DNA of 60,155 bases from Bacillota bacterium. GTDB lineage: Bacteria; Bacillota; Clostridia; Tissierellales; MES13. Shown here piece by piece: positions 291-6,541 of this stretch. The notes under the pieces are model-generated. The model was given only the letters and a program-made list of their open reading frames with translations, was not told the DNA's origin and did no database searches. The stretch is taken from positions 1 through 60,155 of the forward strand of contig VEND01000073.1 of the NCBI GenBank assembly GCA_009711765.1. Direction: 5' to 3'. The stretch's first letter is position 1. The number at the start of each line of letters is the position of its first letter. Both the position numbers and the translations under genes were made by a program.

Positions 291-541
291 AAAAAACCTC
301 GCCCTTATATATAAGGACGAGGTGAATCTCCCCGCGGTACCACCTTAGTTTATTTTTGTATTTAAACAAAAACCACTCTAGATAAATTATCATTGCCTAT
401 AATGGGGCAAACCATTATCTTTTACTTAATTTCAAAGACACTGCTCAGGAGTGAGTAGCATTTTATTTCAGTATCGGTTTGCAGCGACCACCGACTCTCT
501 GTAACTGTACTTTAAAATGCGCTCTCCTTCAACGCTTTAAT
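291..541 (-). promoter_or_regulatory. T-box leader, leucine type (gene-proximal copy)
   Basis: Read on the minus strand, this is a complete T-box leader. It has the GAAGGAGAG 5' base of Stem I, the AGAGAG bulge, and the CTCCTGAGC 3' end. The T-box core AAGGTGGTACCGCGG follows, then a terminator with stem CCTCG…CGAGG and a T-run ending near 291. The specifier loop reads TACTCA between the GCATTTTA/TAAAATGC helix and the basal GGAG/CTCC helix. The triplet followed by the conserved purine is CTC, hence leucine. No gene starts in the 290 bases downstream within the window. Confidence 0.9.
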
Positions 542-655: not shown

Positions 656-903
656 AAAAACTTCGTCCTATTAAATAAGGACGAAGTTTATTTTCTCCGC
701 GGTACCACCTTAATAGTTTTTACTCATATGTAAAAACCTCTCTGTTATAACCATTACCTCTAATGGGGGCAAGCCATTGTCTTCTACTTTATTTCAAAGA
801 CACTGCTCAGGAGTGAGTAACATTTTACTACAGTATCGGTTTGCAGCGACCACCGACTCTCTGTAACTGCACTTGTAAAACGTGCTCTCCTTCAACGCTT
901 TAT
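656..903 (-). promoter_or_regulatory. T-box leader, leucine type (distal copy)
   Basis: This is a second full T-box leader, nearly identical to the copy at 291-541 across Stem I, the AGAGAG bulge, the CTCCTGAGC end and the GGTGGTACCGCGG core. It ends in its own terminator (arms CTTCGTCCT and AGGACGAAG, near 661-685, with a T-run). The specifier loop again reads TACTCA, giving CTC (Leu). The Stem II/III region differs more, so the copies have diverged somewhat since duplication. Confidence 0.9.
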
Positions 904-920
904 TTTTTTAATTTGATATG

Positions 921-3555: not shown

Positions 3556-4539
3556 TTATTCATTTTCTAAGTAAGTAATATTATCTCCATGTGGTTTTTC
3601 AATTGATAATGCTCTTAATGAATCTTCATTTATAAATATTTCTGTTTTTTCTGGCAAACCTACAGACATTTTAGATATATCTTCCCCATTTAATACTTTA
3701 ACAGCCATTTCCCCTGTTTTATATCCAAGTTTATAATAATCTATTCCTTGTGTAGCTAAAGCTCCTTTTTTCACTGATCCTTTTTCTGAAGCTATAATTG
3801 GAATATTTCCTTCTATTGTTTTTTGAACTATGATTGGCATTGATGATACAACTAATTGATCAGTAGGAGCATATAATACATCTACTTTTTTAGTTAAACT
3901 ACCTATAGCTTGGCTAACTTCGTTAGTACTAGTAACTCCTGCTTCTATAACTTCATATCCTTGTTTTTTTGAGACTTCTTTTAATTGGTCAACTAATATT
4001 TCTGAATTTATTTCACTTGTATTATATAAAACACCTATTTTTTTAGCATCTGGCATCAAAAGCTTTATTAATTCTAATTGTTTTTCAACAGGAATATAAT
4101 CTGAAGTACCTGTTACATTTGTATTAGGTTCTTTTAGAGACTTTACTAATCCAGCGGCAATAGGGTCTGTAACTGCACTAATCATAATAGGTATATCCTT
4201 AGTTGAGTTATAAGCACCTTGAGCTGATGGTGTTGAAATTGCAAATATCATATCTTTCTTTCTAGTTGTAAAATTTTTAGCTATTGTCTGAGTGTTTTTT
4301 ATATCCCCTTGGGCATTCTGATAATCAATTTCTACATTTTCTCCATCTATATATCCATTATCCTCAAGAGCCTTTATAAAACCTTCTCTATTTTTATCTA
4401 AAACTTCAAACTCCACAATTTGTGATATACCTATTTTTATTTTTTCATCTGTATTATTCTTATTAGCGCATCCTGTTAAAACTGTGACCCCTATTAAAAT
4501 CATTACTAATACTTTTTTTATTAACTTTCCTTTTTCCAT
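3556..4539 (-). CDS. ABC transporter substrate-binding lipoprotein (TrpX-like, ABC_sub_bind family)
   Basis: This is an extracytoplasmic solute receptor of 327 aa. The N-terminus is a lipoprotein signal: basic MEKGKLIKK, a hydrophobic stretch, and the lipobox LTGC with the modified cysteine at about residue 24. The mature part starts KIKIGISQIVEFEVLD and follows the ABC_sub_bind (PF04392) pattern with two lobes. This family includes predicted tryptophan/tyrosine receptors (TrpX) often found with T-boxes. It is the last gene of a permease-ATPase-receptor operon, and AAGGAGG precedes its ATG. The substrate is not shown by the sequence; the Phe-rich leader peptide upstream makes an aromatic amino acid plausible. 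Confidence 0.85.
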   Translation of the reverse strand: MEKGKLIKKVLVMILIGVTVLTGCANKNNTDEKIKIGISQIVEFEVLDKNREGFIKALEDNGYIDGENVEIDYQNAQGDIKNTQTIAKNFTTRKKDMIFAISTPSAQGAYNSTKDIPIMISAVTDPIAAGLVKSLKEPNTNVTGTSDYIPVEKQLELIKLLMPDAKKIGVLYNTSEINSEILVDQLKEVSKKQGYEVIEAGVTSTNEVSQAIGSLTKKVDVLYAPTDQLVVSSMPIIVQKTIEGNIPIIASEKGSVKKGALATQGIDYYKLGYKTGEMAVKVLNGEDISKMSVGLPEKTEIFINEDSLRALSIEKPHGDNITYLENE

Positions 4540-4557: not shown

Positions 4558-5313
4558 TTATACAGCATATTCAAATTTTTTCAATATATTTTCAATAGTT
4601 ATTTCTTTTTTTTCCTTTCTATTAGCATCTAAGATGATTTTTCCTTTGTGTAGCATTATAAGTCTATTTCCATAGTTAAGGGCATGCCTTAAATTATGGG
4701 TTACCATTAAAGTTGTAATTTCTTTTTTCTTTACAATATCTTTAGTTAATTCCATAATTTCATTAGATGTTTTTGGGTCTAAAGCTGCAGTATGTTCATC
4801 TAAAAGTAATACTTCAGGTTCTGATACTGTTGCCATTACAAGGGATAAAGCTTGCCTTTGTCCTCCAGATAAATACTTTACTTTTACATCTAAATATTTA
4901 TTTAAATCTAAAGAAATATTCTTAAGTAGATCTTCTAATGTTTCCTTTTTGTGTCGCAAACAACCTTTAAGGTTTAATAATTTATTTTTATTTAAAGCTA
5001 ATGATAAATTTTCCCTAACAGTCATTGTAGGACAAGTTCCAAGGGATGGATTTTGAAAAACCCTACTTATAATCTGAGTCCTTTTATGTTCAGGTAATGA
5101 CGTCAACTTCTTATTGCCTAATAAAACTTCTCCTTTACTTTCTTTTAAAACTCCTGAAATAATATTAAGCAAAGTAGATTTACCAGTACCATTACTTCCT
5201 ATAATACTAACAAAATCCCCCTTTTTTATATCCAAAGATAAATTATTAAATAATTTATTTTCACCCCCATAGGGATTATAAAAACTTTTAGATATACTTT
5301 TAATTTTCAACAT
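4558..5313 (-). CDS. ABC transporter ATP-binding protein (TrpZ-like)
   Basis: This is the cytoplasmic ATPase of the importer. It has Walker A GSNGTGKST near residue 40, the signature LSGGQRQAL, Walker B VLLLDEHTAALDP and the switch histidine in VTHNLRHAL. It was placed at the ATG at 5313 (251 aa) because AGGAGG lies 8 bases before it; an upstream GTG at 5322 falls inside that ribosome site. The DEHTAALDP form of Walker B is characteristic of the ATPases that pair with PF04392 receptors. The permease gene ends a few bases upstream. Confidence 0.88.
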   Translation of the reverse strand: MLKIKSISKSFYNPYGGENKLFNNLSLDIKKGDFVSIIGSNGTGKSTLLNIISGVLKESKGEVLLGNKKLTSLPEHKRTQIISRVFQNPSLGTCPTMTVRENLSLALNKNKLLNLKGCLRHKKETLEDLLKNISLDLNKYLDVKVKYLSGGQRQALSLVMATVSEPEVLLLDEHTAALDPKTSNEIMELTKDIVKKKEITTLMVTHNLRHALNYGNRLIMLHKGKIILDANRKEKKEITIENILKKFEYAV

Positions 5314-5326
5314 TTTTTTCACCTCC

Positions 5327-6181
5327 TTATAATGACACTTGTCTACTAGTTATTTGTGATTTAAATTTATCTATAGTAAAAAATAAGATAATAACAAACG
5401 AAGTAATAAACTTAATATCAGTAGCCTTTAATCCTAGATTAAAAGCTAATAATATAACTATTTGATACAAAATTGTCCCAATTATAATAACACTTGTTTC
5501 TTTTAAAAAATTAATCCTTTCAAATAATGATTTTCCTATAACTATAGAGGCAATCCCCAATATAAGACTTCCTATGCCCATAGATACATCTGAAAACCCT
5601 TGATATTGTGCCATTATATTTCCTGAAAAACAAACCAAACCATTCGATAGCATTAACCCTAATATTTTAATTTTACCAATTTCTATACCTAAAGACTTCA
5701 CCATTTGTGGATTATCTCCCACAGCCTTTAATGTATATCCTATACCTGTTTGAAAAAATTTATCTATTAATATTTTCATTATTAAAATAATACTAATTGA
5801 AATTATTAATGGAGATATATCTATTTTGAATAGATGTTTTTCATTAAATAAAGGAATATTAGCCCTCCCCATGATTCTTAAATTAATTGAATATAAAGCT
5901 AACATTACTAATATCCCAGAAAGTAAGTTTGAAACCTTTAACTTAACATGTAAGATTCCTGTAAATAAACCTGCTAGCATTCCTGCTATTAATGAAAATA
6001 AAGACCCCACCACTGGTGAAATTCCATATTTTAGTGAAATTGCTATAACAGCTCCTCCTAAAGCAAAACTACCATCCACTGATAAATCAGGAAAATCTAA
6101 AATCCTATAACTAATATAAATCCCTAATACCATTATTCCTAAAATTAAACTTTGTGTAATTACTCCTTCTAATACTTCCAT
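5327..6181 (-). CDS. ABC transporter permease (TrpY-like, LivH-type fold)
   Basis: This membrane subunit of the importer is about 284 aa with roughly eight hydrophobic segments. The conserved start LGIYISYRILDFPDLSVDGS and GYTLKAVGDNPQMVKSLGI are typical of permeases in the branched-chain amino-acid permease superfamily that accompany TrpX-type receptors. The ATG at 6181 was preferred: GGGGAG lies 8 bases upstream, whereas a TTG at 6187 is only 2-3 bases from it. It is the first gene of the operon, 56 bases after the second leader hairpin. Confidence 0.87.
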   Translation of the reverse strand: MEVLEGVITQSLILGIMVLGIYISYRILDFPDLSVDGSFALGGAVIAISLKYGISPVVGSLFSLIAGMLAGLFTGILHVKLKVSNLLSGILVMLALYSINLRIMGRANIPLFNEKHLFKIDISPLIISISIILIMKILIDKFFQTGIGYTLKAVGDNPQMVKSLGIEIGKIKILGLMLSNGLVCFSGNIMAQYQGFSDVSMGIGSLILGIASIVIGKSLFERINFLKETSVIIIGTILYQIVILLAFNLGLKATDIKFITSFVIILFFTIDKFKSQITSRQVSL

Positions 6182-6236: not shown

Positions 6237-6427
6237 CCGCATGTTTTACCATGCGGACAATTTAAAAAGGCCACATAGAATTAATCTATATGGCCTCTTT
6301 CAAATACTTTATATAAATATGAAAACTTCTATATTATAGCCACATAGATATAAACCCTAAAATTTTTTTGAATCTTAGGGTTTATATCTATGTCAGTTAC
6401 TAGTGTTTAAACATAGCTACAAACCCT
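6237..6427 (-). promoter_or_regulatory. attenuator with alternative hairpins before the ABC importer
   Basis: In minus-strand order the leader holds these elements. Segment 1 (6427-6412) has AGGGTTT and CTATG. Segment 2 (6392-6375) can pair with 1 or, over a perfect 18 bp, with segment 3 (6360-6343). The distal end of 3 (ATCTATGTGGC, 6349-6339) can pair over 11 bp with the 5' arm (6294-6284) of an intrinsic terminator. That terminator is 6295-6269 (arms GGCCATATAGA/TCTATGTGGCC) followed by TTTTT. The distal end of 3 and the terminator's 3' arm share the same 10-base sequence, so they compete for one partner. A further hairpin (6256-6237, CCGCATG/CATGCGG) follows. Pairings 1:2 and 3:4 exclude termination; pairing 2:3 permits it. 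Confidence 0.75.
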
Positions 6428-6482
6428 ATCTAAATTGGCTACTAAAAAAGAATTGTACTTGTCTGTTATCTAAAGTTTTCAT
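6426..6482 (-). CDS. leader peptide of the ABC-importer attenuator
   Basis: This short frame encodes MKTLDNRQVQFFFSSQFR (18 aa) with a GAGGAG ribosome site 8 bases before ATG. Three consecutive Phe codons (TTC TTT TTT) occupy positions 11-13, with another at 17. Its TAG stop abuts segment 1 of the attenuator, so a ribosome at the stop would cover segment 1. A ribosome held at the Phe run would leave it free. It lies about 30 bases after a strong -10 box. It is too short for homology; the role is inferred from position and structure. Confidence 0.65.
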   Translation of the reverse strand: MKTLDNRQVQFFFSSQFR

Positions 6483-6512
6483 ATATATCTCTCCTCAAAT
6501 TTGTTAATACCG

Positions 6513-6541
6513 ATTATATTTAACTTTTAACACTAAGTCAA
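6513..6541 (-). promoter_or_regulatory. promoter of the attenuated ABC-importer operon
   Basis: TTGACT (6541..6536), a 17-base spacer and TATAAT (6518..6513) on the minus strand lie just before the leader-peptide ribosome site. Confidence 0.8.

What the first reader, a model, noticed from the sequence alone, without database searches (positions are those of the whole stretch)
6237..6541. Leader-peptide attenuator controlling an aromatic-type ABC importer
A consensus promoter, an 18-codon leader with a strong ribosome site and a Phe-Phe-Phe run, and a set of mutually exclusive pairings end in an intrinsic terminator. The distal end of segment 3 and the terminator's 3' arm are copies of one 10-base sequence, so they compete for the same partner. 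The leader stop abuts segment 1. In the model, a ribosome waiting at the Phe codons leaves segment 1 free, giving 1:2 then 3:4 and read-through. A ribosome at the stop masks segment 1, giving 2:3 and termination. TrpX-type importers are usually known behind T-boxes; peptide-based control, and possible phenylalanine sensing, would be new to my knowledge. A drug-responsive leader is an alternative.
Basis: partly seen in the sequence, partly recalled or inferred. Interest (0 to 1): 0.82.

Follow-up and report, generated by a model that had tools for sequence, protein, structure and literature searches.

The report
Codon-swappable attenuator behind orphan trpB motif
In a clostridium-like bacterium a tiny leader gene with four phenylalanine codons sits in a predicted switchable RNA ahead of a likely tyrosine/phenylalanine importer, and the same layout with tryptophan, histidine or tyrosine codons stands before matching genes in other Firmicutes, so it is likely a codon-swappable amino-acid sensor that would also explain the orphan 'trpB motif' riboswitch candidate.

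Summary
The element is real and conserved. An 18-codon leader (MKTLDNRQVQFFFSSQFR*) runs into segment 1 of a chain of competing arms ending in a terminator, upstream of a permease-ATPase-SBP operon; 12 other genomes carry it before the same kind of operon. Its relatives form a Firmicutes set of 94 leaders whose control codons match the operon wherever a gene could be assigned (81 of 81): His before hisZ/hisD (16), Trp before TrpX/trpB (20), Phe/Tyr before aroE and TrpX-family importers (45). In the binding proteins one pocket residue switches with the leader: Gln279 with Trp codons (19 of 19), Tyr279 with Phe/Tyr codons (23 of 23). This favours aminoacyl-tRNA sensing over drug or peptide-arrest sensing. 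All 14 places found over the cut-off for Rfam's 'trpB motif' (RF04312, an orphan riboswitch candidate) in one family have a WxxW leader just upstream of the model; all 30 fetched RF02863 loci ('Enterococcus sRNA 2410') have a Phe/Tyr leader. Folding shows the predicted ribosome-position switch in 60 of 90 elements (7 reversed), but the window's own sequence is one of the reversed. Nothing was tested at the bench. Verdict: leader-peptide attenuation, a new variant of a known kind; the interest lies in the shared, recodable layout.

The parts
6513..6541 (-). sigma-70-type promoter TTGACT-17-TATAAT
   Evidence: 11 of 12 matches; TTGAC-type -35 boxes also visible upstream of most relatives' leaders
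6426..6482 (-). leader ORF MKTLDNRQVQFFFSSQFR* with SD GAGGAG (6496-6491)
   Evidence: frame conserved in 12 other genomes
6427..6440 (-). segment 0 (leader 3' end), partly complementary to segment 3
   Evidence: weak in the window; paired in the RNAalifold structure and in the RF02863 consensus
6411..6426 (-). segment 1, starts in the leader stop codon
6378..6393 (-). segment 2, complementary to 1 and to 3
   Evidence: 2:3 covariation
6339..6357 (-). segment 3, complementary to 2 and to 4 (partly to 0)
6284..6295 (-). segment 4, terminator 5' arm / antiterminator partner
6269..6280 (-). segment 5, terminator 3' arm followed by TTTTT
   Evidence: (hairpin -17.1 kcal/mol)
6237..6256 (-). second intrinsic-terminator-like hairpin
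   Evidence: 1 found, 0.1 expected
5327..6181 (-). ABC permease (BPD_transp_2)
4558..5310 (-). ABC ATPase
3556..4539 (-). substrate-binding lipoprotein, TrpX family (PF04392), pocket S262/E263/Y279 in CD0873 numbering

Best explanation
The element is likely a ribosome-mediated transcription attenuator in which scarcity of charged tRNA-Phe would stall the leader ribosome on the Phe codons and let RNA polymerase read on into a predicted tyrosine/phenylalanine ABC importer operon. Shown by sequence: a leader ORF with SD, four Phe codons starting 6 to 24 nt before the stop, and a chain of arms 1, 2, 3, 4, 5 in which 1:2 and 3:4 exclude 2:3 and 4:5 (terminator). Inferred: a ribosome held at the control codons covers segment 0 but leaves segment 1 free, so 1:2 forms, 3 captures 4 and the terminator cannot form (ON). 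A ribosome that reaches the stop covers most of segment 1, so 2:3 and 4:5 form (OFF). With no ribosome, 2:3 (in relatives also 0:3) holds segment 3 and the result is also OFF. Across Firmicutes the same layout carries Trp, His or Tyr/Phe codons before genes for that amino acid, and Leu codons before two LeuT-like symporters, so the sensing unit appears to be recoded while the RNA layout is kept. The Rfam 'trpB motif' would be its 3' half (segments 2-5).
For: Conservation: the leader end/segment 1 21-mer lies upstream of the permease in 12 of 64 other relatives fetched; the 10 SBP-first operons whose upstream DNA I printed lack it. Codon-operon match: 81 of 81 elements with an assignable gene (16 His, 20 Trp, 45 Phe/Tyr; the Trp label in that script came from the leader, so the independent support is the next item). 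Pocket-codon match: residue 279 is Gln in 19 of 19 TrpX proteins behind Trp-codon leaders, one of them (L076) from a different family of the window's order, and Tyr in 10 of 10 SBP-first and 13 of 13 permease-first proteins behind Phe/Tyr leaders; PMC6816091 (passages) ties Gln there to Trp binding and Tyr to Tyr or Phe binding in solved structures. Leaders were not in the search model: RF04312 starts at segment 2, yet 22 of 23 places found in one family carry WxxW leaders, including all 14 over the cut-off. 30 of 30 RF02863 loci fetched (31 places listed) carry Phe/Tyr leaders before aroE or a TrpX-family protein. Fold test, 90 elements: median P(3:4) 0.17 with no ribosome, 0.78 at codon -5, 0.27 at the stop; 60 in the predicted direction, 7 reversed; shuffling segment 1 abolishes the difference (0.27/0.30). 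2:3 covariation: 89 double-change cells against at most 52 in 500 shuffles. PMC5593968 (passages) reports sRNA_2410 as a 195-nt RNA validated on Northern blots (as two transcripts), as a terminated leader could be.
Against: The window's own sequence does not switch in silico: 2:3 dominates at every ribosome position, P(3:4) is 0.07 with the third Phe codon in the A site but 0.77 with the stop there, opposite to the model; all 21 runs of a crude co-transcriptional model end in 2:3 plus the terminator; it is the one reversed case of 15 in its group. The His group (codon -5 0.09 against stop 0.24; 3 up, 2 down of 12) and the SBP-first Phe/Tyr group (2 up, 2 down of 10) do not show the switch either. 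The model uses a static ribosome and equilibrium folding. Pocket E263/Y279 predicts tyrosine, but the window leader has no Tyr codon; the SBP-first Phe/Tyr proteins have Ser or Ala, not Glu, at 263. Covariation of 3:4 is marginal (6 against at most 5) and of 4:5 no better than the best shuffle (8 against 8). The leader's last codons are constrained as RNA too, so peptide and RNA conservation cannot be fully separated. Elements are related by descent, so counts are not independent. No expression data.
Confidence: 0.85

Rival explanations
1. Nascent-peptide arrest: the conserved C-terminal residues (F-x-S-Q-F-R-stop) sense free Phe/Tyr or another small molecule in the ribosome tunnel and arrest the ribosome at the stop codon, as TnaC does (TnaC recalled).
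For: Residues -6, -4, -3, -2, -1 are far better conserved than the first ten codons in the 13 genomes.
Against: Across the family the tail changes with the operon's amino acid (WQTWRR, HHHHR, YYFSYFR, SQFR, LLLLAELL), which codon reading predicts and a single arrest motif does not. The conserved tail codons also pair as RNA (segment 0:3).
Confidence: 0.08
2. An aptamer riboswitch: the RNA itself (segments 2-5) binds an amino acid, as first proposed for the trpB motif.
For: PMC11109978 (passages) lists the trpB motif as a strong riboswitch candidate with covarying hairpins.
Against: No complex aptamer fold is evident; segments 2-5 are two hairpins. A leader ORF with operon-matched codons lies just 5' of the model in all 14 over-cut-off places found in one family. 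The authors themselves could not rule out a classic attenuator.
Confidence: 0.03
3. A drug-responsive leader (erm/msr/ABC-F type, recalled) in which ribosome-targeting antibiotics stall the leader ribosome.
For: General layout (short leader, terminator) is shared with such leaders.
Against: The downstream genes identified are amino-acid transport and biosynthesis genes, not resistance genes, and the codons track the amino acid.
Confidence: 0.02
4. The window's copy has drifted into a mostly constitutive double terminator: a decayed attenuator with 2:3 too stable to be displaced (compatible with the best explanation for the family).
For: 2:3 dominates at every ribosome position in both folding models.
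Against: Promoter, SD, frame, Phe codons and all arms are intact. The near orthologues L033, L034, L036, L037, L038, L039 and L040 switch in silico. At the third Phe codon P(3:4) is 0.07, about 1.6 kcal/mol, inside folding error.
Confidence: 0.1

Closest known systems
his operon attenuator of enteric bacteria (arm-by-arm logic recalled; principle described in passages of PMC9413887)
   Same: Leader peptide with runs of control codons; alternating arms; ribosome at control codons gives the antiterminator, at the end of the leader the terminator.
   Different: No Rfam leader family matched the locus; in relatives a 0:3 pairing of the leader's own end helps hold the untranslated state OFF; the same layout is used for Trp, His, Phe/Tyr and Leu codons.
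Rfam RF04312 'trpB motif' (PMC11109978, passages)
   Same: Covers segments 2-5; in one unnamed family (f207) all 14 over-cut-off places have WxxW leaders just upstream.
   Different: Published as an orphan riboswitch candidate; the passages read mention no leader ORF for it; the window scores 34.4 bits, below the cut-off of 59.
Rfam RF02863 'Enterococcus sRNA 2410' (PMC5593968, passages)
   Same: Consensus includes the 0:3 and 1:2 pairings and, read by eye, S-Y-F-R-stop; all 30 loci fetched have Phe/Tyr leaders.
   Different: Annotated as a small RNA; the window scores 23.7 bits against a cut-off of 61.
His leader attenuators of Firmicutes (PMC9413887, PMC2965389, passages)
   Same: His-codon leaders before his operons; the Peptostreptococcaceae/Lutispora cases may be the His members found here (not compared).
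   Different: Reported for His only, without link to Phe/Tyr/Trp leaders or the trpB motif in the passages read.
T-box leader of trpX (PMC9382623, listing and abstract start)
   Same: Controls a TrpX-type importer through an RNA element in the leader.
   Different: T-boxes read uncharged tRNA directly, with no leader peptide (recalled); no T-box at this locus, though two lie elsewhere in the window.

Membership tests
Leader-peptide (ribosome-mediated) transcription attenuator | short leader ORF with ribosome site, frame conserved | tested here: met
   SD + ATG + stop in 13 of 13 genomes; translation itself not shown
Leader-peptide (ribosome-mediated) transcription attenuator | control codons match the amino acid of the operon | tested here: met
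   for the family; for the window itself Phe codons but a Tyr-type pocket
Leader-peptide (ribosome-mediated) transcription attenuator | mutually exclusive antiterminator and intrinsic terminator | tested here: met
   (arms, terminator hairpin, 2:3 covariation; 3:4 and 4:5 covariation marginal)
Leader-peptide (ribosome-mediated) transcription attenuator | ribosome position decides between the structures | tested here: inconclusive
   60 of 90 elements as predicted, 7 reversed; window itself reversed
Leader-peptide (ribosome-mediated) transcription attenuator | read-through rises on starvation for the amino acid | not testable with these tools
   needs reporter or term-seq
Rfam RF04312 trpB motif | score at or above gathering cut-off (59 bits) | tested here: not met
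   34.4 bits
Rfam RF02863 sRNA_2410 | score at or above gathering cut-off (61 bits) | tested here: not met
   23.7 bits
T-box | match to RF00230 at the locus | tested here: not met
   T-boxes only at 310-541 and 674-904; none at the locus up to E = 1
TrpX tryptophan SBP (NF041285) | score over the curated cut-off (390) | tested here: not met
   306.6; pocket is the Tyr type

The most novel reading that the evidence does not exclude
The window element, the orphan trpB-motif riboswitch candidate, the Enterococcus 'sRNA 2410' and the scattered His attenuators are one pan-Firmicutes family of attenuators built as a cartridge: one RNA layout whose specificity is changed among Trp, His, Phe, Tyr and Leu by swapping the control codons, co-evolving with the pocket of the importer it controls (Gln/Tyr at 279). 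It would be a non-T-box regulon sensing tRNA charging in bacteria thought to rely on T-boxes.
Probability: 0.72. Interest if true: 0.85.

Novelty: new variant of a known kind. Interest (0 to 1): 0.78.

Why it matters
It offers a testable answer to an open item in print: what the trpB motif (more than 900 representatives, listed as a strong riboswitch candidate; PMC11109978, passages) senses. If right, ligand searches on that RNA would fail, and one recoded reporter would settle it. It also shows leader-peptide attenuation as a broad strategy in Firmicutes beside T-boxes, and gives hints for transporter annotation: the leader codons would predict the substrate of NSS symporters and of a BrnQ-family carrier.

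Tried and rejected
Single-molecule folding of the window and a crude co-transcriptional model did not separate the states for the window itself; reported as evidence against. A first fold statistic counted any upstream pairing of arm 4, and the next mis-assigned some terminators, the window's included; both were replaced (90 of 92 elements assigned; L075 and L090 not; L071 and L088 not in the table). A covariation script failed with an error and was rewritten with anchors that do not depend on pairing (13 of 92 elements could not be assigned or anchored and were left out). Model hits without a leader were taken as chance and dropped before counts: L073 and L091 (R1), L110, L113, L119-L121, L123-L131, L133-L134 and L159 (RF04312). 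Opposite-strand matches of the near-palindromic arms were ignored. L158 has a WxxW leader with ATT in place of ATG and is counted only in the 22 of 23. L081, L082 and L069 repeat L035, L045 and L004 and were not counted twice. The leader class uses residue frequencies that I set by hand. A link of Ser262 to Phe leaders and Ala262 to Tyr leaders was considered and not claimed: L036 and L040 (Phe, Ala) and L035 (Tyr, Ser) break it. No similar DNA in the plasmid collection. Seven paper searches listed no paper that I recognised as reporting a leader peptide for the trpB motif or Phe/Tyr leaders in Firmicutes; I read passages of three of those listed and most subscription journals are not covered.

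Full report
What is there. On the minus strand a near-consensus promoter (6541-6513) is followed by a leader ORF at 6482-6426, MKTLDNRQVQFFFSSQFR*, with SD GAGGAG. The stop codon's last base opens segment 1 (6426-6411). Segments 2 (6393-6378), 3 (6357-6339), 4 (6295-6284) and 5 (6280-6269, then TTTTT) follow, then a second terminator-like hairpin at 6256-6237. The region is far more structured than shuffles (z = -7.55). Downstream lie a permease, an ATPase and a TrpX-family binding protein. No Rfam family reaches its cut-off at the locus, while two T-boxes elsewhere in the window do.

Conservation in orthologues. I fetched permease relatives from 60 related genomes and from named species genomes. 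Searching both strands, 12 of 64 loci other than the window's own carry the same leader end and segment 1 upstream of the permease. Eleven are named records (Tepidibacter, Clostridium, Oceanirhabdus, Peptoclostridium, Marinisporobacter and others) and one is unnamed (L004). The 10 SBP-first paralogues whose upstream DNA I printed lack it. The FFF run varies (VVF, IIF, FVF, FYYY, FSF), but an aromatic codon at -6 and Phe at -2 stay in 13 of 13.

A wider family. A covariance model of the core (R1) matched 9 of 249 genomes of the order and 14 of 391 of the class at E up to 0.01, some by chance hairpins. Read out, the real ones have the same layout with other control codons: HHHH-type leaders before hisZ, Phe or Tyr leaders before sodium symporters (NSS), a YYFSYFG leader before a BrnQ-family carrier (gene families). 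In one genome (G536) two tandem importer operons carry one Phe and one Tyr leader. Sub-threshold Rfam matches then pointed to RF04312 (trpB motif) and RF02863 (Enterococcus sRNA 2410).

Test on the trpB motif. RF04312 begins at segment 2, so it knows nothing of the leader. In Clostridia 0 of 391 genomes pass its cut-off (37 match at E up to 0.01). Of the 30 loci fetched, 15 of the 17 best-ranked (L102-L118) and 1 of the 13 weaker have a leader with His, Phe/Tyr or Leu codons. Of 398 genomes in the phylum sample 1 passed the cut-off; in that genome's family 12 of 29 did. There 22 of 23 places, including all 14 over the cut-off, have a leader with W-x-x-W near its end (one has ATT in place of ATG). 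The genes that could be read are TrpX, or trpB in L146; L145 and L155 gave no readable gene. RF02863 in the same 29 genomes: 22 had a match (31 places), 30 loci were fetched, 30 have Phe/Tyr leaders, 20 before aroE and 10 before a TrpX-family protein. Genes were grouped by blastp clusters and named from representatives.

Codons track the amino acid. The element table holds 94 leaders (with L071 and L088 added by hand and L089 and L092 re-picked). In all 81 with an assignable gene the leader class agrees with the gene (16 His, 45 Phe/Tyr, 20 Trp; best of 20,000 label shuffles 48). The Trp label in that script came from the leader, so I rest the claim on the pocket. In PMC6816091 (passages) Gln at the position of CD0873 Tyr-279 goes with Trp binding, and Glu-263 with Tyr binding; the Phe binder VC_1101 has Ala and Tyr there. 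Residue 279 is Gln in 19 of 19 proteins behind Trp leaders and Tyr in 10 of 10 SBP-first proteins behind Phe/Tyr leaders, whose residue 263 is Ser or Ala. In 13 of 13 permease-first operons scored behind Phe/Tyr leaders it is Tyr with Glu-263; L004 and L041 are cut short and were not scored. The remaining 13 leaders stand before NSS symporters (8 Phe/Tyr, 2 Leu before the NIWRFPY type), BrnQ (1), or no readable gene (2). Lineages are related, so these are not independent trials; L076, a one-Trp leader with a Gln279 protein in the window's own order, is a separate case.

Ribosome-position logic. With a static ribosome footprint and the transcript cut after segment 4, the median chance that 3 pairs with 4 is 0.17 (no ribosome), 0.72 (A-site codon -7), 0.78 (-5) and 0.27 (stop) over 90 elements; comparing -5 with the stop, 60 go the predicted way and 7 the other; shuffling segment 1 removes the difference (0.27 against 0.30). 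In the window's own group the medians are 0.96 against 0.30, 11 of 15 as predicted and 1 reversed. The reversed one is the window: its 2:3 helix is so long that it dominates everywhere, and P(3:4) is 0.07 at the third Phe codon but 0.77 at the stop, where part of segment 1 stays free; all 21 runs of the crude co-transcriptional model end with 2:3 and the terminator. The His group (3 up, 2 down of 12) and the SBP-first Phe/Tyr group (2 up, 2 down of 10) also fail to show it. My offsets count from the stop, which lies further downstream in many His leaders. Helix 2:3 shows 89 double-change cells against a shuffle maximum of 52; 3:4 shows 6 against 5; 4:5 is no better than the best shuffle (8 against 8) (79 of 92 elements).

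Relation between groups. R1, made from the window's group only, recovers 19 of 19 Phe/Tyr loci of family f207 given to it (of 30 held) and 2 of 2 Leu loci, but 1 of 19 Trp loci and 0 of 4 further His loci. Those are tied in through RF04312. Common descent of the whole set is therefore likely, not proven.

What is known. His leaders in Firmicutes are in print (PMC9413887, PMC2965389; passages). The trpB motif is in print as a riboswitch candidate whose authors could not exclude an attenuator (PMC11109978; passages). sRNA_2410 was validated on Northern blots, as two transcripts, with a length of 195 nt from RNA-seq (PMC5593968; passages). I found no paper joining these or reporting Phe/Tyr or WxxW leaders.

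Open points. Which of Phe and Tyr the window's importer carries; whether the window copy still switches; whether default OFF without translation (0:3) is real; and any bench evidence at all.

Noticed in passing
window 310-541 and 674-904, minus strand: Two tandem T-box leaders (RF00230, 139 and 132 bits) reading off the end of the contig, divergent from an acetolactate-synthase-like ORF at 1160 (named by eye).
   Followed up: no
L135 (G536:C1:3424300-3434500): Two near-identical importer operons in tandem, one with a Phe leader (MKTLLNKQVRFFSSQFS) and one with a Tyr leader (MNTLLNNKKYYYYYSHYF); the Tyr-leader binding protein matches CD0873 letter for letter over the pocket stretch compared.
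   Followed up: partly
L086 / L138 (G604:C17): A BrnQ-family (branched-chain) carrier behind a Tyr/Phe leader (YYFSYFG): either the carrier takes aromatic amino acids or the leader is mismatched.
   Followed up: no
L109 and L139: Leu-rich leaders (LLLLAELL, LLLADLF) before NSS symporters of the NIWRFPY type, while NIWMF-type NSS have Phe/Tyr leaders.
   Followed up: partly
L158, just upstream of the RF04312 hit at 174: WxxW leader whose start codon position reads ATT instead of ATG.
   Followed up: no
G000:C112:7883-8689: A second importer permease (52% identical) in the window's own genome; its counterpart in the same-genus genome (L006) is SBP-first and lacks the leader.
   Followed up: partly
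L084:516-607: A 'pan motif' RNA (RF01749, 42.9 bits, over its cut-off) about 1 kb upstream of the Phe-leader NSS element.
   Followed up: no
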